64,000 nt of DNA. It comes from Lobosporangium transversale (lineage: Eukaryota; Mortierellomycota; Mortierellomycetes; Mortierellales; Mortierellaceae). Below the pieces are notes generated by a model. It had not been told where the DNA came from, searched no databases, and saw only the letters and a program-made list of their open reading frames with translations. The position numbers and the translations under genes were made by a program. Within the stretch, counting starts at the first letter, position 1; each line of letters begins with the position of its first letter. Shown in pieces: positions 1-63,600 of the stretch. The stretch lies in contig NW_019029017.1 of assembly GCF_002105155.1 (NCBI RefSeq), positions 310,001 to 374,000 on the forward strand. The letters run 5' to 3'.

Positions 1-56
1 GAAAGTGCTTTCAACTAACACCTTTTATTTATTTATTTACTTTAATGTAATTGTAG

Positions 57-645
57 CAAGGTAGATATGTGGGCATGTGGTGTTATATATATGTGCATGA
101 GGCTCGGGCGATATACTTGGCATGAGGCCTCGAATGGAGACCCCATTTGGGATGCATTCCTGTACAAGCGTGAGCGCTTCCTGAGTGTCCAGGATATCAA
201 GCTGCAACAGCCACAGCCACAGCCACAGCTAGCACAGCACATGGCACACTCAAATCCTTATAGGAGCCACACCCCTCCTTCTCACATCAATCTGACAGCA
301 ATCGAGCAAGTACTACATGTCACACTTGCGTGGCCAAATCATGTTCTAGATGTGATTGAGAATGTTTTGGAGCCTGATACAAGGAAACGATGGCAGGCTA
401 CTAGTGTTATGAACAGTGAGTGGTTTCAGTTAATTGAGAACTGCCATCCGACCCCTCCTCCTCCAGAACAGGTGTTGGATGAGAGCGACTTTGAGGCAGC
501 CATCCCGAGTCAGAGAGTTGGCTCTAAAGTCATTGCTGAAGGTGCGTCTGTGGCAGGATGCAAAATTGTAAAAGAAGTTAAGCAAAGGCGAACGATAGCA
601 GGGAGTGCAACAAGAAGTATAGATGGAGTCTCTCATGAATCATAG
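57..645 (+). CDS. Ser/Thr protein kinase, C-terminal fragment (HAL4/NPR-like)
   Basis: This is the last exon of a protein kinase whose start lies outside the window. An intron ends in ttgtag at 51-56, and the exon opens mid-codon at 57. It reads KVDMWACGVIYMCM, which is kinase subdomain IX (D-x-W-x-x-G), followed by a basic helix and LEPDTRKRW, the subdomain XI arginine motif. The spacing between them, with the insert around GRYTWHEA and DPIWDAF, resembles the fungal HAL4/SAT4-NPR family, which regulates nutrient and ion transporters. After the kinase fold there is a proline-rich stretch and about 60 polar residues of tail. A Q/P repeat sits at about residues 48-57 counted from the first internal Met. 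The catalytic loop (HRD) and DFG are not in the window, so activity cannot be judged. The family assignment is an inference from subdomains IX-XI only. Confidence 0.75.
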
Positions 646-1485
646 AAATCCCGGGATAATGGCTCTAGAAACTTAAAACTAAAATATAGAAATTGGGTAT
701 TGGACTCCCCTTTGAGTTGTACGCTGTAGTGTGGTTGGTCGAGGTCTTTGACTGGTTGGCTTCAAGGCCCAGTTGACGCCCAAAGTTTTACGGTTATTAG
801 GTTGAGAGTGTTCTACGATTCATGGTGTTGTCGCCTCTTTTAATGCGAGGGTGGGAACGGTGGTGAAGCGCGTCGTTTCATTGGTTATGGACATTGCCTT
901 CGAGTATCGAGTGCTCAGTATCAAAGGGCTTCTGAGCTTGCGATGTAAGGCAGCAACCAGCCTGCCATTGGTCCCAGTTCATACAATGCTTACTGTTAAC
1001 ATGGAGGATAGAGTCAGAGCATCTTTACAAAATGAGTAATAGCGAGGGGGAGATAAACACAAAATACTGAAGTGGGGACATCGAACAGCGCCTCCTAGCA
1101 TGGTCGAGCTTATGGGATTACATTTGATCTTGTGTGCCTCAAGGTAGGCGAGAACGCCCTGCCCATCCATATTACGGCAGGTTTACTTGCACATGATGAA
1201 TCATTCGTAGAGAGCATTAGCCTTTACTCTTTAGCTTTAGTTTTTGTAAAGATTAGCATGTTCTCTTTAGGACAAAACTTACTCTGCGTGGTCCAGAAGG
1301 GAAATACAAAGATCAATGAAAAGAATCAAATTTATTAACACAAAAAAAGGTAAATAGTAGAGCTGTAAAATAGCAAAATGGCAAAGCAAAATAGTAAAAA
1401 TAGTACAATAGCAAAAAAAAAAACATATTATTCTCAATGCTAGAGCCGTTTTCTCGGCATGTGGTCCCCGTACAAATACTTGCAA
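646..1485. other. Convergent 3' spacer, no gene seen
   Basis: This 840-bp spacer separates the 3' ends of the kinase (+) and the RdRP (-). Only short open frames without family resemblance occur. The A-rich part at about 1338-1430 probably includes 3' UTR and polyadenylation signals of one or both genes. Confidence 0.6.
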
Positions 1486-4400
1486 TCACGTCTGAAATCC
1501 AAGCGCCAAGGACAGTATACTATCTTCAGCATCTGGCTCAATAACTGTGTATCCTTGTTTTGGCCGACTGAAAAACCCCCTCCGAAGCTTCCCTCTCGGT
1601 CCAAGATCTTCGATGAATGTGTTGGAGTCAAAGTCGATCAAATCGACAGAACCATTAGGTGCATGATTCGTCCCAATCCCTGAGTCACGTCCCTGTAGAA
1701 GCTTAGCTGGTAACTCATATGTGTACGGAGGAAGTTCTCCAACAGTATCACTATATAGAGTCAGCTGATCCTGCCGCTCTTCCGTTCTATTACTGGGAAT
1801 CTTGTTTATGGAGACCGGCGGGTCCACTTCGAGCCCTTGCGCCTCCTGTGTGTTCATCCCTAAACCCGATTCCTCTGTTGGGGCTATTAGTGATCGCATT
1901 ATGGCCCTCGATTGCTCCTGCAGCGCAGAGCGTGGCGACGGTACAACAACCCGCACTCTCGAAGCAATCTTGCACAGGTAGTCCCACCCAATCCATGCAA
2001 AAGTATATGGTTGATCGGGTCGTAAGTTCTGGTAGCAAACCGCATACCATGCTGCGGCCTTCATCTCTACATATTTTTTTTGGGTGGGCGAAACTTCTTT
2101 AGAGCCTGGCGCATAAAATTCTTGCTCCAGTTCCGCACGGAACTTGCGTCTGATAGCGGAATACGCGGTGACGATCGATTTACGGATATCGTGTTCGCGA
2201 TTATTTGTAATTAGATCGACTCCCATGATAAAGCCGCTGACCAATTCTAGATCACTACAAGAAGATACGGGCATAAGGTCAATTAACAAAAAAATAAAAT
2301 AAAAAAAGAGAGACTAGAGAGAGAACTATCACATTTTTTCACTATTAACAATGCACTAAAGGAGTTATAGTTTTGCTTGACATACTTTTTGATCCCATAT
2401 TGGTTCATCAAAGAGCGAACCTCATCATCGTATCGCTCTTTGACTTGGCGAGCATTCTGCATGTAGTCTTCATGGCCATCAATGAGAAGGCGCTCCCAGC
2501 AGGATTGTTCATAATTTTTTGGCTTGAACGGCACCGTTTTAGCGCATTCTCGATATATCTGCCCAAGAACTTTCTTGGACGGATAAGTCTTTTCTGGTGG
2601 TTTTTCCATAAAATCAGGGTATTTCTTTGGCTTTAGTTCTACCCTAAAATCCGCTGGTTTCCCCGACTTTGGGAAATCTACAGCGTCAGAATGGAGCTGT
2701 GCAAGCCGAAGGCATTTTCCGTGGTGGGGGCCCTCGTCATAATAGTCAGAGAGGGCCAAGTGCGCGTTAGCGATTTGGCCTAGATTGTTCAGGACCGCAT
2801 ATTGAACAAAAAATTTCATGACGTCTAGGATCGTGACATCATCTCTCATCTCGGCTTCGCGACCAGCATAGACCATCGGTGGGACTTCTTTTATCTTTTC
2901 GACAATGTCAGGATCCCAAATCACCCTATCCAGAAACCAATGGCATCTTGAGTAAGCCACGAAGAAACATAAAATATAAAAAAGACAATTTCCTTTCAAA
3001 AAGCCATGCTAGGTGTGTTAAGCTGAGGGTAAAGAGTTACTCACGTAAAATCTATGACATCGGTAAAAGTAGCAAGTATATAAAGGCGTAGTGTCAGTGA
3101 AATTATTAGCGCATGATCATGTTGCTTTGTTCCCATCTGTAATTATAAGGGCAGATACTAACCGTCTCCGTCAAGATCCCCTCCACTGCACATACTGGGA
3201 ATACCCCGTTCTCCTTTGGTATTAAAGACCACAACATCGCGCAAATGCCACAGCTCAGGACAGTCGACAGCCTGAACGATCCTGATGTCTCCAGGATGGA
3301 AACATGGACAACGCACGACAGCACACTTGCCTGTGATGACCTCACGCTTACTAGGATTCCCAACGGCCGAAACTTGGACAAAAATTTCGCCCTCCTTGAG
3401 CTTCCCTGTTTCGTCGCATACTCCAAGCAAATACGCGCCTTTTTGGACATAAATCCTCGCCTTTTTGGCAAGCTCCTCCAACATTTGAAGCTTAAAGAGG
3501 GTCAATAAATTCTTAATGAACGGGTCTCCCCGTTGCAGAAATCCTGCTCGGATCATGGTCGTCATCATCTTGGATGTGCCACTTTCATCCCAATTTTGCA
3601 GCAGCATCCTATTAGCGACCGCATCGTTGGACTCAATTTCCTCTAGATCCCGAACCATACTGTTCTTTAGGTCCAATATGGTCTACGAAGAATTAAAATA
3701 GAAAAATTACACATGCAAATGTGTGAGGTCATCACGACTTGACGAGCGAGAGATAAACCTTTAAATAACCCAATTTAGCATGCAAAACATAAACGCATAT
3801 CCACACTAGCGACGCCTACCTGTTCGGGAACACCCAAGCCTGTAAGCAAAATGATGATTTGCCTATTTAGGAAGCTTGGGATAAATGACGAGGTCCTGAT
3901 CACCTCGAGAACCAAATGCGAAGCCTTAAATTTCTCCATACTTGGACGGATCTGCACACGTTTCCCTCGCAAAGGCGGATGGTAGACCAGAACACCTTTG
4001 GATCCACCCAATCGGATCTGAAATGCTGAAGGCCTCACTTCCTTCTCCATTTCAACAGCAATCGTCTCAGCCAACGTCCTAGAGATTCTTCCACAGCCAT
4101 CAGAGAATATGGCCCCATCATGCTCTATATCATCAATCATTTCCACTTCGGAAGACATCAAGTTCGCGATTGCTCTTGTGGATGAGAAACATTGACCCAT
4201 CCGTGCTGCATACTTGGCGATCGACTTTATCCGTGAAAAGTCGCCCATCCATTGTCGGATACTGTCCACCGTATCGGGGCCGCCCTGGGCACAAAAAAAC
4301 CACGCAGAGTTTTCTCTCAACTGACTCGCTGAGAAAGCTAGAAAACTATATTCGCGGTCGCCTATTTTGATACCGCGTGTCAACGCTGAGAAGATACGAT

Positions 4401-5946
4401 TGTATATGGCGTTATTTTCATTACTCGTGCTGTCCTTAGACCACACACGATTACTGCCTTCGTCCGAGAATTCAACGCGTAGGAAATAGTCGCGTTGTTG
4501 GACAAAATGCCGAATTATCCTGTTGGAAGTTTCGAGGGTTGGTGGCTGCAGATGGATGGTAGTAGGTGTAACAATAATCTTCCTGAGATTTACATATTGT
4601 TCTGCTACTATCCGAGGCCGGGTAGCAGCCTTGGATAGCTTGGCGGCTTCTTTTACAAGGTAGTCCTTGAGGTTCCATATACGCTGACGATTTGAGATGA
4701 TGTTCTCAAGAATCATAGTAGCTTTAAGGGGCTCTAGATAATGTAAGATCCCCGCCACTTCAGATGTCATATCATAATCTATGACGAGATTGAAGGAGAG
4801 CGCTGATTCGAGCATGTAGCGCACGTCGAAGTCAAGTCCTTTAAAGGCATCCATATCGGGTCTGGATGAGCTCTCCTGCACGATATTTGGCACCATGTCC
4901 ACACTGAGGAGGTTGAAATCTCTGCATTTCCTTTTAAAAAATGCCAGCCCCCTGCTTTCCTGAGGAACCACCAACCGGATAACAGTCCACCGTCCGAGCA
5001 TTGCCGAAAGATTTGGTGGACTTGGCTCAAGCGGCATTACGTTAGTGGGTGGTCTAACATGGAATTCGGCACCCTCTTTCGGAATGTCCACCACGCGTCG
5101 CATACACGAAAACATCGACCATTTTGAATTATCCGAACTTTCCATGTTCGGATCATAGCGCCAATACATGGGTGGGAAGCGCAGGTTGATGACGATTGCG
5201 GCTGTATTGTTTTTTAGATCATCGATTTGAATACACCCTTTCTCCATGTCGTGAAATTTCATATCGACATAGTATTTGATGACTGTGTCCTTGAATTCTC
5301 TCTTAAATCCAATTTTTATCATCCTACGATTTTCCTGGAACTGTATTGAGACTCCAGATGTGGCCACGAATTCACTGCAGAAGACGTTTTTTTCCAGTTT
5401 CTGCCCTAGTTCGAAGCTATTGGCAGAGCACCATGATGTGCCCCCGCTACCACCGGATTGAATTAATGTTATTTGTTGCGGGACACTCACGAGCCCTTGT
5501 ATATTGTAAGGTCGGGCCTCAAAAAGCACGATGGCATCGTGCCTGCCATCAGTCCTATCCACCGTGACATCACCAATCTCTCCAAATTGTTCGAACTTCT
5601 TCTTAATATCCATTGCAGTCATATTAGAGTCAAGATTGCTGATACGGATCCGCACACTCTCGTAGGGCTTTTTTTGGCTCAGTGAATTCTGAAGCTCGTC
5701 GCGCTCAACTTCAGAATAACTTTGCTGTATCGAGGGCTGGATCGCTATCCTTTGTGGCTGATGTGGTTGTTGATATCTATGATATGGCGTTCGGTATTGG
5801 TATTGCTGCTGTTGCTGCTGTTGCTGCTGCTGCTGTTGCTGTTGTTGCTGTTGTTGCTGTAACTGGCGAGAGCTAGAATCGCCTCTGGACGGCCATATGT
5901 AGCTCCGAGAGGTGGTTAGGCGGTAGGGAGTGGTTGGGGCAGCCAT
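1486..5946 (-). CDS. RNA-dependent RNA polymerase (QDE-1/RDR family)
   Basis: Cellular RdRPs make dsRNA from aberrant transcripts and feed Dicer in fungal RNA silencing. I read five exons: 5946-3820, 3682-3163, 3051-3045, 2925-2386 and 2254-1486. They sum to 3963 nt, giving 1320 residues. The third exon is only 7 nt (ATTTTAC); it joins DLDGD to TVIWD and gives DLDGDDFTVIWD at about residues 878-889, the metal-binding aspartate loop of the catalytic double-psi barrel. The N-terminus has 19 consecutive glutamines (residues 31-49), then an RRM-like module at about 95-150 (VRIRISNLD, FGEIGDVTV), then the RdRP body with GCGRIS at about 690. I chose ATG 5946 because the upstream in-frame extension to 6168 is a hydrophobic low-complexity stretch encoded by a pyrimidine-rich leader. 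It is divergent with MED20 across 362 bp. No catalytic residue appears lost, so it is probably functional. Confidence 0.93.
5803..5859 (-). repeat. CAG/CAA polyglutamine tract in RdRP
   Basis: Nineteen consecutive Gln codons, a mixture of CAG and CAA, lie near the RdRP N-terminus. The surrounding 60 residues are also rich in Q, Y, R and P, so this is a disordered, prion-like segment. Mixed codons suggest it is not expanding as a pure triplet repeat. Confidence 0.9.
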
Positions 5947-6308
5947 TTTGGTGGATAACAGAAACCGGAACGCCAAAGGAACGCTTTGTATTGAATCGTG
6001 ACGACCTTGAGGAGGAAAACGACTGATAGAATAGAAGACGGAAACTGAAAGAGCAATTGAAAGAGGAGAAAAGGACAGGGAGAGATAAAGGAAGGAGAAG
6101 AGCAAGGGAGCACTGGTGTGGAAGAAGCGATTGCTTTGAGAATGAGGAATCAAGCGACGATGAAACAAAAAGAATGATGCACAAAAAAAAAAAAGCTAAA
6201 AAATTCCACACGCTGACGCCACCATTAATTTTTTTTTTTTTTTTTTTTTTTTCAAATTCGTATTTACGCATCCTTAAAGCATCAGGAAGAAGTACAAAAA
6301 ATCCATCA
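5947..6308. promoter_or_regulatory. Divergent promoter region of RdRP and MED20
   Basis: The two start codons face away from each other across 362 bp. The stretch has an A12 run at 6182-6194 and a T24 run at 6229-6252, which may act as nucleosome-excluding poly(dA:dT). No specific operator was recognised. Confidence 0.5.
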
Positions 6309-7519
6309 ATGGGTGCCACCTGTCTAGTTCACTGGAAGGATGCCAATGGTCAGCAGTCCCTTACATTACTCTCTGAACGGCTTCTCAAACAGTTCCATGC
6401 TAACCCCATTGGCCGATGGACCATCAATTGGAAGGTTTTTAGGGACACTAGTCCCGTCTCAAAATCAGGAACAGGAAAGATGCTCCATGTTGTATATGTT
6501 CAAGGTGGCGCAACTGCTCGAGGCGTTCCTCCAGGATCCCAGGCGGCTAACACGTCAGCAGGGAGCGTTTTAAGTGGCACAGGTGCTGGTCTAACTGGAA
6601 ATACAAGTGCTATAGCGTCCAATGGTGTTGGGAGCGCAATATCAGGGATGGCAGCTGGGACTGGGGGGATGGGCTTGAATACGGGATCAAGCAAAACTGG
6701 ACTAGGTATTCTTCCACCGGGCGGGCCTTCTGCTAACATAGTAGGAGCAGGAGCGGGTGTAGGGAATATGGGAGGATTGACATCAGCGCAAGCAGCTGCT
6801 GATTCATACAATTCAACAGCATGGTGTCTCATTGATGATGGTGCTGTGGGACTGACGTCGGCATCTGCAGCTTCTACAAACAATGTCAATACATCTTCGA
6901 ACACGGCCGGTGCTGATGCAGCAGGTTCAAAGAAAAAGGCTGTCCTGGTCGAAGTCGAAAAAGACATTGAAGCGCTCATTGCCAAATTGAAGAATCTCTG
7001 GGTCCACCGACAACATGCACAAGTTGAGGTCCGTTCACTTGTTCGGCATGTGCCATATGTATTACTCACAATGGTCGTAATAACCTGTATACTCTTTTAA
7101 TGGTTCAATAGGGGTATGTTTTCGACCTGGGTGATTTTATTGTAAGAGCAGGAAACATTATGGTTGCTTCAACGAGCTATAAAGGGATGTTAATTGAGGT
7201 AAGCTTTGTCACCAATATGAGGGAAGAGATGAGTCTCAATCACAATTATCATGTTATAACATGTCTGAAGTACTGGTTTTCATTCCCTTTAAACACATTT
7301 TCAAAGATCGAATATCTCCCACAAACATCTAGCGCCATAGCTTCCAATGCCATTCTCGAGGAATTTGTCCGCCTAATTTCTCCACCAGGAGTGACACTTT
7401 ATTCTCCACAAATGCTTGATTATCCCTATGAGCAAGTTGGATTGGATTCAAAGCACTGGTCCATGCTCCATTCTGGTTTCCAATATATGACTCTCTTTAG
7501 GAGACAGCACATCCTGTAA
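6309..7519 (+). CDS. MED20: Mediator complex subunit 20
   Basis: MED20 belongs to the Mediator head module, where it pairs with MED18 and contacts RNA polymerase II. Exons are 6309-7028, 7112-7198 and 7307-7519, giving 339 residues. The diagnostic start MGATCLVHW is present. After the splice, QVEGYVFDLGDFIVRAG and YKGMLIEIEYLP match the conserved core of the family. The first donor is a weak GTCCGT, but the phase-0 join restores the family motif. Between about residues 75 and 205 there is an insertion rich in Gly, Ala, Ser and Thr, which makes the protein about 130 residues longer than usual and is probably a disordered loop. It shares its upstream region with the RdRP gene. Confidence 0.85.
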
Positions 7520-60633: not shown

Positions 60634-63600
60634 ATGACCGGACAGTCTCAGGCACAAGGCACTGCCGCGGCCATTGAGACATCTGTCCAAGTCGGTATGT
60701 ATGCCAAAAGCCGTCTTCATTTTACTCTTACAACCATCCAAGTCCAAAAAAAAATGCTATCGACTTTACAGCAAAGCTCCAACAATCATGCTCATCTTTT
60801 AAGCAATACAATCAAGGCTGTATTTTCTGCCTTGCAGGAATGGCATTGTTTAAAAGAGGAAAAAATAGATGCTCTTACTGTGCGCTCTAATTGCTTGTCA
60901 GATTGCTAGCGGTTTATCAGTAGCTCAACATATTATTCTTTCAATCCTTTAAACCACAAGGATACTCGCTCTCATCGCTCACACCTATTTTATTGCCCAC
61001 CCTTTTTCATTTCGAGTTGATGTGCACACAGCGACCTTCAACATAAAAAGCATAACAGTCTTTTGGTCAGCGTATAGTCAGCCAAGTAAAATAGTTTGCT
61101 TTTCTCTCACAACAATATTTGCTTTTTTTTTTTTTTTTTTTTTTTATTCAACTGATATAAACTACAATAGCTCTTCGGATCCGACCCATCATAACGGACC
61201 CAAAGAATGTAAACAAAGCTCGAGGGCGCGCTGAGACAGAAGTACTCTCAGTTATTGAACGCTCGCCTACACCCTCATCTTTATCCTCTGCATCAGGTGC
61301 GCCTGCACACGACCAACCTCAACAAGTTGTAGTCGTCCCAGTCCAAAGATATTTCACGTTTGACCATGTCTTTGGTACTAACGCTACACAAGAGGAGATC
61401 TATCAAGGCAGTGTCAAACGAATGGTTGACAAATTCATGGAAGGTAAAGAGTGAGCTCCTCCCCCTGCATGGCTGTTCGTTCGTCTGCTTTGCAATAATG
61501 ACAGTCTGTACTGGAAACTACATCAATGGTAACATAAAAACAAAATGACTTGATTTTTCATGCATTTTCTTTCCACCAACAATTTAATTAATGATAGGTT
61601 ACAATGTAACGATTATGGCATATGGCCAGACTTCTTCTGGAAAAACATATACTATGGGCACTGGGGCACCATCATCTGAGGACCGAGGTAGCCCTTCAGA
61701 AGGTTAGTAAATTCAACACTGAAAAGCATTCGCTTGAAGCTGAAGGGGATAGTCTGGATATGCACGGACTTGTCACAAGCATGGAGTGTATACATGCAGG
61801 AACTAGGGATGGCTCGCGCACGTGCTAATGTATCCACCTAAAAACATTTTGCACCATATATCTACACAGGTATCATCCCACGCGCAGTGGCACAACTTTT
61901 TCATGATGCTAGAAAACCACCTCCTGTATACCCAGGCTATAAAATCCCGCCTCTCAAGACAAGCTTTCGCGTATCTTTTGTGGAGATTTATAACGAAGAT
62001 CTAATCGATTTATTGGCAAAAGGAGATTTTCGTCCTCCCGTAACCATTCGTGAAGATACAAAGGGAAATATTTTTTGGACAGGAGTACAGGAAATTGCTG
62101 TCGCATCAGTAGAGGAAGTCATCCAGTAAGTACTATATGCTGCAAGAGTAATAATGCACATGTGTAATCATTCACCAGATTATAACTAAAAAAAAAAAAA
62201 AAAAAAAAAAATAGTTTACTTTGGTATGGCTCTCAGAACCGACAGACACATTCCACAGAGATGAATGAAAAATCATCTAGATCCCATGCTATCTTCAGCA
62301 TAACCTTACGGCAAGAAAAGTTTGTTCCAACCCATCCTCCTCCACCATTACCCGTCATAGACTCTTTAAATTCTCCCACGTTATCCAAAAATGCACATCC
62401 CAGGTCACCCAGTCTAAGCAATACCACTAGTATCGTACCAGGATCACCAGCCTCGATTCGACCCGGAACGCCAACTACCATGGGGGCATCTAGTATTCCT
62501 ATGCCATTTTCAAGCGGAATCGCTATTCCAGGTTCAAAGCTGAAGCGCCAGAGCACTCTGTCCGATATAACAGCATTAACAGCCCCTTCAACGCCGATTT
62601 CGACCGCAAATGATGATCCAGAGCCTGATGGCGAATGGGTTGTTCTAAATAGTAAATTTCATTTTGTGGACTTGGCTGGCTCTGAGCGTCTGAAGCGGAC
62701 ATCGGCCATCGGTGATCGTGCAAAAGAGGGAATCAGCATCAATGCAGGGCTTCATGCACTAGGAAATGTTATTTCCGCACTAGGGGATCCTAGTAAAAAA
62801 GCAAGTCATGTACCATATCGTGATTCAAAACTTACGAGGTTGCTACAGGACTCATTGGGAGGCAATGCACTGGCCCTGATGATTGCCTGTGTTAGTCCAA
62901 GCGAAATTAATCTTAATGAGACTCTTGTGAGTACAGATGAGTTATTATTACACATGGGAATACTCGTAGTGAGGGTTTAGTATCGATTTAGCAGAAAAAA
63001 AGAAAAAAAAAAATGGAAATCTAATCGTTTTTTCATCTGAACATGGGATGATAGAATACACTCAAGTATGCAAACCGCGCACGTAACATCAAAAACTCTT
63101 CCACTTTAAACCAGGAAGTAAATATGGACAACCCAGAATACTTGCGCTCCATCATCCAGAAGCTTAAAATGGAGATAAAAATGCTCAAGGAAGCCAATAC
63201 TAAAATGGGAGTGGGTTCAGATGACAATGGGAATTCAGCCTTAGACAGCCCAAGTCCCAAAACTATCCAATCAGGTCGTCTTTCAATCCAATCAACTGCT
63301 ACTTTTGCGCCTGGAGGACTCGACGATGCTCTGAGTGACCGTGCCTTCTCGCCTTCACCCTCAACGAGGCTCTCTCATTATCAAAGTCGCGAATCACTCT
63401 CCACTGATATCAGTCATAGTTATTTGGATGCCGTCCAGGAAGAGGAGGACCGCTATTCGGATATTTCGTCTACTATCAGGACAGACGTAGTTCGTACGGG
63501 TGCCAGCAGTGCGAGTGAGACGACAGCTACTTCACCTACGTCCCGGCCCAATATTGCGCCCCTAGTCATTCCACAGCTCCTTGATACCAAATCTTTTCAG

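What the first reader, a model, noticed from the sequence alone, without database searches (positions are those of the whole stretch)
3045..3051. 7-nt micro-exon encodes part of the RdRP catalytic aspartate loop
Directly visible: exon 2 ends in DLDGD plus one G, then catag|ATTTTAC|gtgagt, then gatag|G GTG ATT TGG. Only with this 7-nt exon does the loop read DLDGDDFTVIWD; without it the frame breaks and the motif is incomplete. Three exons thus share one catalytic loop. Skipping it would shift the frame and kill the enzyme, so its inclusion could act as an on/off switch for RNA silencing. That regulatory idea is inference.
Basis: partly seen in the sequence, partly recalled or inferred. Interest (0 to 1): 0.75.

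Follow-up and report, generated by a model that had tools for sequence, protein, structure and literature searches.

The report
Conserved seven-base exon in fungal RdRP
A fungal gene for an RNA-silencing enzyme appears to carry an exon only seven bases long, right beside the codons of its active site, and related fungi appear to share it; it is an unusual piece of gene structure of a known kind that some database annotations have missed.

Summary
On the minus strand, 3051-3045 (ATTTTAC) lies between two GT-AG introns (111 and 119 nt) in the only PF05183 RdRP gene found in this Mortierellaceae genome. Including it gives a 1320-aa protein reading DLDGDDFTVIWD; skipping it gives an immediate stop at 883 aa. 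It is the best of 802 splice paths; the motif arises in 37 (strict) or 237 (relaxed) of 100,000 shuffled intervals.

Conservation, read from proteins: seven of seven motif-containing Mortierellaceae single-exon ORFs from metagenomes break at DLDGDG, as an intron at the same base predicts. Four of 35 deposited Mortierellaceae proteins carry a matching scar. Sixteen of 16 short ORFs from other Mucoromycota read through that site; 14 stop right after [F/Y][T/S/R], at the site of intron 3. The search favoured short ORFs, and at least two Mucor-like ORFs read through both sites. So intron 3 looks old, and intron 2 looks gained 7 nt upstream, creating the micro-exon.

Correction: the three DxDGD aspartates are all in exon 2; the micro-exon encodes the next three residues. 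Nothing shows a regulatory switch; no transcript was seen. New member of a known kind.

The parts
3820..5946 (-). Exon 1 of the RdRP gene, from ATG at 5946 (residues 1-709)
   Evidence: PF05183 match 1-262
3163..3682 (-). Exon 2; ends DLDGD (D878, D880, D882) plus one G of codon 883
   Evidence: PF05183 261-439
3052..3162 (-). Intron 2, 111 nt, gttagt...catag; inferred gain in the Mortierellaceae
   Evidence: same position inferred from 7 of 7 relatives' ORFs that contain the motif
3045..3051 (-). 7-nt micro-exon ATTTTAC: last two bases of D883, F884, first two bases of T885 (phase 1 to phase 2)
   Evidence: conservation read from proteins
2926..3044 (-). Intron 3, 119 nt, gtgagt...gatag; position inferred shared with many Mucorales, Umbelopsis, an Endogonales-like fungus and Glomeromycotina
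2386..2925 (-). Exon 3, starting G GTG ATT TGG (VIWD...)
   Evidence: PF05183 443-582
1486..2254 (-). Exon 4 to the stop codon; whole protein 1320 aa

Best explanation
ATTTTAC at 3051-3045 is a true, obligate, constitutively included micro-exon of the cellular RNA-dependent RNA polymerase gene. It arose when a new intron (intron 2) was inserted 7 nt upstream of an older intron (intron 3) in the codons just after the DxDGD triad, in an ancestor of most or all Mortierellaceae, and it has been kept because the conserved loop cannot be encoded otherwise. Both flanking introns have the usual length for this genome (111 and 119 nt), so the spliceosome can remove each by intron definition without having to recognise the tiny exon as a unit. 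Shown: the sequence, the frame logic, the superiority of this splice path, and the pattern in relatives' proteins. Inferred: presence in mRNA, the direction of the change (gain), constitutive inclusion and intron definition.
For: Frame and family match. Best of 802 splice paths by 12.6 bits, 24.8 bits above any path with at most one intron. Chance 37 to 237 in 100,000. Intron 2 in relatives: of 8 Mortierellaceae-like exon-2 ORFs from metagenomes (P0121-P0128) 7 contain the motif, and 7 of 7 read DLDGDG then K (5) or M (2), i.e. GACG|GTAA[A/G] or GACG|GTATG. Their best matches are M. polycephala, M. alpina, M. hygrophila, Entomortierella, Benniella, Podila and, at 82%, Gryganskiella. P0015 (M. 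polycephala) and P0016 (M. hygrophila) are annotated with DDFTVIWD although near-identical ORFs (98.8%) break there. Exon 3: P0148 (Podila-like) and P0149 (Entomortierella-like) reach VFWD/VIWD from upstream residues S and R, as acceptors AG|Y and AG|R with one base completing the Thr codon predict. Scars in 4 of 35 deposited Mortierellaceae proteins (genera checked). Intron 3 older: 16 of 16 ORFs (P0129-P0143 and P0115) read through the intron-2 site; 14 stop right after [F/Y][T/S/R], as XX|GTRA in phase 2 predicts, and P0140 and P0142 continue T-YVSKHSK, as AC|GTATGT would. Umbelopsis-like ORFs read R where the annotated Umbelopsis protein has S, as AG|G versus AG|Y explains. Tree of the exon-2 region: 34 Mortierellaceae tips form one clade, support 0.88.
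Against: No cDNA was available. No DNA of any relative could be fetched (searches found none), so splice positions in relatives are read from protein sequences. The exon-2 search admits only proteins of about 96-304 aa, which favours ORFs that end near this place; longer metagenome-source proteins P0098 and P0099 (Mucor-like, 86 residues beyond the motif) and P0061, P0075, P0078 (over 420 beyond) read through both sites, so intron 3 is not universal. The 16 ORFs include three near-identical pairs. Actinomortierella, the deepest branch of the clade, has intact proteins but no ORF that shows its gene structure, so the gain cannot be placed before or after its split; the tree rests on one short region. 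The S in the M. alpina scar (GKSVIWD) is not explained. The two donors flanking the micro-exon are below average for this genome, which would allow leaky splicing.
Confidence: 0.87

Rival explanations
1. Regulated switch: inclusion of the micro-exon is variable and gates RdRP activity, and so RNA silencing, under some conditions.
For: Skipping, or retaining either intron, truncates the only PF05183 RdRP found at the active-site loop. Both flanking donors lack A at +3 (gttagt, gtgagt), which 36 of 39 other donors have, and each outscores only 5 of 39. A glucose-dependent 20-nt micro-exon switch is reported in Trichoderma Xlr2 (PMC11121469, passages read).
Against: No RNA evidence. Relatives' intron-2 donors look ordinary (5 of 7 GTAA[A/G], 2 of 7 GTATG), so weakness is not conserved. 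Skipping yields only a truncated polymerase, and constitutive inclusion explains everything seen. The donor sample is small, was resolved partly by a fitted matrix, and the comparison is post hoc.
Confidence: 0.07
2. No micro-exon: a different join (one intron, or a longer internal exon) gives a functional protein.
For: Of 802 paths, 67 stay open, 14 of them with at most one intron.
Against: All others score lower: the best path with at most one intron has 251.4 against 276.2 bits, and it puts at least 20 unrelated residues after DLDGD. 31 of 35 deposited Mortierellaceae proteins read [DE][FY][TR] at this place.
Confidence: 0.03
3. The gene is a decaying pseudogene and the 7-nt match is accidental.
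For: Two off-consensus donors.
Against: 1320-aa open frame with full-length PF05183, E 3.6e-192, and 73% identity to M. claussenii; accident expected in 37 to 237 of 100,000 shuffles; the only PF05183 copy found, in a genome with four Piwi-domain loci and at least three Dicer-like loci.
Confidence: 0.01

Closest known systems
Fusarium CYP621A one-nucleotide exon (PMC12940212; abstract and Discussion read)
   Same: Fungal enzyme gene; tiny exon inside a highly conserved motif; joins a phase-1 to a phase-2 boundary; inferred from an annotation mismatch; conserved in orthologues.
   Different: 1 nt against 7 nt; P450 against RdRP; theirs has SRA read support. The authors propose rescue of a lost base by a cryptic exon, whereas here the pattern points to intron gain beside an older intron.
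Phanerochaete chrysosporium CYP5141A1 8-nt micro-exon in the I-helix motif AGHETT (as cited in the Discussion of PMC12940212)
   Same: Similar size, inside a conserved enzyme motif, in a fungus.
   Different: Different enzyme family; conservation and origin not compared here.
Trichoderma Xlr2 20-nt switch micro-exon (PMC11121469; abstract and other passages read)
   Same: Fungal, missing from the deposited gene model, not a multiple of three, encodes part of a functional domain.
   Different: Xlr2 inclusion is regulated by glucose with RNA-seq support; no such evidence here, and skipping here gives an immediate stop.
Conserved small plant microexons missed in annotation (PMC8831610; start of abstract in the listing and one reference-list passage)
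   Same: Exons of at most 15 nt, conserved, often missed by annotation.
   Different: Plants; RNA-seq based; the word 'fungi' does not occur in the main text.

Membership tests
Micro-exon (internal exon of at most 15 nt) | Internal exon of at most 15 nt with AG before and GT after | tested here: met
   tcatag|ATTTTAC|gtgagt
Micro-exon (internal exon of at most 15 nt) | Needed for the frame and for a conserved motif | tested here: met
   Skip gives DLDGDG*; inclusion is the best of 802 paths
Micro-exon (internal exon of at most 15 nt) | Conserved in orthologues | tested here: met
   Intron 2 in 7 of 7 motif-containing ORFs, exon-3 start in 2 ORFs, scar in 4 of 35 proteins; read from proteins, not DNA
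Micro-exon (internal exon of at most 15 nt) | Present in mature mRNA | not testable with these tools
   No transcript data available
Cellular RNA-dependent RNA polymerase (PF05183, RDR/QDE-1 type) | Full-length PF05183 domain | tested here: met
   1-582 of 582, 640.5 bits
Cellular RNA-dependent RNA polymerase (PF05183, RDR/QDE-1 type) | DxDGD motif aligned with solved RdRPs | tested here: met
   DLDGD aligned with DLDGD of RDR2 (7eu0, 7roz) and DYDGD of QDE-1 (5fsw)
Cellular RNA-dependent RNA polymerase (PF05183, RDR/QDE-1 type) | Polymerase activity | not testable with these tools
   Bench assay needed
Switch-like regulated micro-exon (Xlr2 type) | Condition-dependent inclusion | not testable with these tools
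   No RNA data
Switch-like regulated micro-exon (Xlr2 type) | Skipped form is a plausible second product | tested here: inconclusive
   Skip gives 883 of 1320 aa, losing the last 129 residues of the PF05183 match at 459-1012; whether it has any function cannot be said

The most novel reading that the evidence does not exclude
In this lineage the two off-consensus donors around a frame-breaking micro-exon make splicing of the only RdRP message rate-limiting, so splicing efficiency, and anything that alters it, sets the dose of RNA silencing in the whole fungus.
Probability: 0.07. Interest if true: 0.75.

Novelty: new member of a known kind. Interest (0 to 1): 0.42.

Why it matters
It gives a case, placed on a tree, of how a micro-exon can be born: a new intron landing 7 nt from an older one inside a motif that tolerates little change. 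It also suggests that deposited RdRPs of Mortierellaceae can carry a wrong active-site loop (4 of 35 here), which would mislead anyone expressing or modelling them. And it shows that single-exon ORFs from metagenomes can map intron positions in relatives whose DNA is not at hand.

Tried and rejected
Relatives' DNA: the search for related loci with P0002 found no relative in genome contigs (15 pattern stretches, none confirmed) or viral contigs, so intron positions in relatives rest on protein sequences.

Literature, counts of papers that hold the terms: micro-exon plus fungal plus RNA-dependent RNA polymerase, 0; Mortierella plus RdRP plus RNAi plus Dicer, 6, listing only; Mortierellomycota plus RdRP plus Argonaute, 0; microexon plus Mortierella, 2, one of which only names a TopHat option and the other, an algal genome preprint, was seen in the listing only; micro-exon plus Mortierella, 0; microexon plus RdRP plus RNA silencing, 2, listing only. 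Broader searches: microexon plus fungi plus splicing, 40 papers, 20 listed; microexon plus misannotation, 7; fungal plus micro-exon plus intron, 11. The library is open-licence PMC only.

Donor strength: read minus-strand genes in the wrong orientation, so their numbers are not used; one search corrects this. In one search, 39 of 41 introns were resolved, from Cpn60/TCP1 and kinesin genes. Rows dropped before that count: kinesin matches on C93, C107, C95, C52 and C61 and one on C57; Cpn60 matches on C93 and C124 and one small one on C55. Only 6 of 39 had a single possible solution; the others were chosen by an iterated matrix, so rare donors may be under-counted.

P0128 lacks the motif and was left out of the 7 of 7. 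P0144-P0147 (ascomycete-like) read through both sites, 4 of 4, and are not among the 16. Longer metagenome-source proteins P0061, P0075, P0078, P0091, P0098, P0099 and P0108 also read through; they are told as evidence against universality of intron 3 but not counted, since some may be multi-exon predictions. Of the 35 proteins, only P0148 and P0149 were used. One search listed 120 of 679 matches, so 35 is the number of Mortierellaceae among those listed, not all. Rfam found nothing in 1400-6100.

Full report
What is there. The gene lies on the minus strand at 5946-1486. Five exons (5946-3820, 3682-3163, 3051-3045, 2925-2386, 2254-1486) give an open frame of 1320 aa. Pfam finds PF05183 over its whole length, 1-582 of 582, E 3.6e-192. 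With a 714-aa piece as query, the nearest solved relatives are plant RDR2 (E 1.1e-122) and, more distantly, QDE-1 (E 8.8e-25). The nearest deposited proteins are from Mortierellaceae, with M. claussenii, Dissophora ornata and Gamsiella at 73% identity. In the 42.7-Mb genome the three PF05183 matches are exons of this one gene, and a search with an ascomycete RdRP finds the same three places; these searches score only the best candidates. The genome also has four Piwi-domain loci and, by RNase III and Dicer_dimer matches lying close together, at least three Dicer-like loci, so a silencing pathway is plausible.

The micro-exon. Exon 2 ends DLDGD plus G; then come 111 nt of intron, ATTTTAC, 119 nt of intron, and G GTG ATT TGG. 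The genome search with PF05183 skips three profile positions between exon 2 and exon 3 (439 to 443), which are the residues that ATTTTAC supplies with its split codons. Without it the message reads DLDGDG-stop; with intron 3 kept it reads DDFT-stop.

The aspartates of DxDGD are residues 878, 880 and 882, all in exon 2. The micro-exon gives most of D883, all of F884 and most of T885. Among P0037-P0120 with the motif, the first of these positions is D, E, Q, L, F, I or T and the second F or Y; QDE-1 has M-A there. That the DxDGD aspartates hold the metal is recalled knowledge.

Is it more than chance? All GT-AG paths through 3220-2880 with introns of at least 45 nt were enumerated: 101 with at most one intron and 701 with two introns and an internal exon of 1-150 nt. 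They were scored with a profile built from 80 RdRPs, none named as Mortierellaceae. The micro-exon path is first at 276.2 bits; the next, which differs only in the last acceptor, has 263.6; the best path with at most one intron has 251.4 and inserts unrelated residues. Of the 802 paths, 67 stay open, so openness alone would not decide. In 100,000 dinucleotide shuffles of the 237-nt interval, 19,594 contain AG-N7-GT but only 237 (relaxed) or 37 (strict) rebuild the motif.

Conservation read from deposited proteins. One search listed 120 of 679 matches; 35 of the listed (P0002-P0036) are Mortierellaceae by genus. Of these, 31 read [DE][FY][TR] and then a hydrophobic pair and W after DLDGD, and four do not: Gamsiella (GNVIWD), Podila verticillata (GNVLWD), one Benniella paralogue (GKVIWD) and M. 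alpina (GKSVIWD). GK and GN are what GGT-AA(R/Y) reads, i.e. a donor GTAA taken into the exon because the micro-exon was missed; the S in M. alpina is not explained. Two of the 31 (Benniella P0020, P0023) have R in place of T. How the 31 intact proteins are spliced cannot be read from them.

Single-exon ORFs called on metagenome contigs are more telling. A search with the exon-2 peptide alone gave 27 proteins; this search admits only proteins of 0.55 to 1.75 times the query length, which favours ORFs ending near this place. Eight are Mortierellaceae-like; seven contain the motif, and seven of seven run DLDGDG followed by K (five) or M (two) and then unrelated residues. By best match to the named proteins I compared, they resemble M. 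polycephala (98.8%), M. alpina (96.6%), M. hygrophila (98.8%), Entomortierella parvispora (89.7%), Benniella (88-93%), Podila verticillata (92.3%) and, more loosely, Gryganskiella (82%). From the other side, the exon-3 search gave 35 proteins, of which two were informative: P0148 (Podila-like...FSVFWD) and P0149 (Entomortierella-like...DDRVIWD). S and R there are what AG|Y and AG|R read, the phase-2 start that the window has; the window's own ORF reads LDRVIWD.

Origin. Fifteen exon-2 ORFs from other Mucoromycota (P0129-P0143, nearest to Jimgerdemannia, Rhizopus, Mucor, Cunninghamella, Syncephalastrum, Umbelopsis and Funneliformis) and the Rhizophagus-like P0115 read straight through the intron-2 site, 16 of 16; three near-identical pairs are among them. 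Fourteen of 16 then stop right after the T/S/R codon, as a phase-2 donor XX|GTRA does; the window's own intron 3 reads the same way, DDFT-stop. P0140 and P0142, neighbours on the tree, read T-YVSKHSK, as AC|GTATGT would. In the Umbelopsis-like ORFs (P0134, P0137, P0141) the residue is R where the annotated Umbelopsis protein has S, which AG|G against AG|Y explains. Against universality: Mucor-like P0098 and P0099, the longer P0061, P0075 and P0078, and four ascomycete-like ORFs read through both sites. On a FastTree tree of the exon-2 region with 75 tips, 34 Mortierellaceae tips including the window form one clade (support 0.88), and Podila, the first branch after Actinomortierella, already has intron 2. 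The simplest account is an old intron 3 and a gain of intron 2 seven nt upstream. Actinomortierella cannot be judged.

How it works. Both introns are of ordinary length (39 resolved introns of this genome: 86-185 nt, median 109), so removal of each intron as a unit should not require recognition of the 7-nt exon; this step is inference. Both flanking donors lack A at +3, which 36 of 39 others have, and each outscores only 5 of 39. Relatives' intron-2 donors look ordinary. This permits leaky splicing here but does not show it, and a conserved switch is not supported.

Known context. Tiny exons in conserved motifs of fungal enzymes are known: the 1-nt exon of Fusarium CYP621A and an 8-nt exon in Phanerochaete CYP5141A1 (PMC12940212, abstract and Discussion read), and a regulated 20-nt exon in Trichoderma Xlr2 (PMC11121469, passages read). 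Small plant microexons are often missed in annotation (PMC8831610, start of abstract and one passage). The searches listed no paper whose title or abstract start reports this one; most of the listed papers were not opened.

Verdict. A well-supported, conserved micro-exon; ordinary in kind, unusual in size and place, with a readable origin; presence in mRNA is untested and the regulatory idea remains speculation.

Noticed in passing
window 5803-5859, minus strand: Glutamine-repeat tract near the N-terminus of the RdRP, followed by a segment that looks RRM-like by eye; several relatives carry PF00076, but the window protein shows only PF05183 at E 0.001.
   Followed up: no
P0016 (Mortierella hygrophila, deposited protein): Carries an extra stretch between GVPE and VIWDLK that looks like an unspliced intron 1, another likely annotation error in this family.
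   Followed up: no
   Followed up: no
window 46-645 and 6315-7519, plus strand: Flanking genes: the end of a protein kinase domain (PF00069) and a Mediator subunit 20 gene (PF08612, two pieces in different open stretches; the first piece is just under the Pfam cut-off).
   Followed up: partly
window 61588-62932, plus strand: A kinesin gene in several pieces (PF00225 matches at C61:371588-372932).
   Followed up: no
P0098 and P0099 (Mucor-like, metagenome source): Read through both intron sites, so intron 3 may have been lost in some Mucor RdRPs while Mucor-like P0143 keeps it.
   Followed up: no
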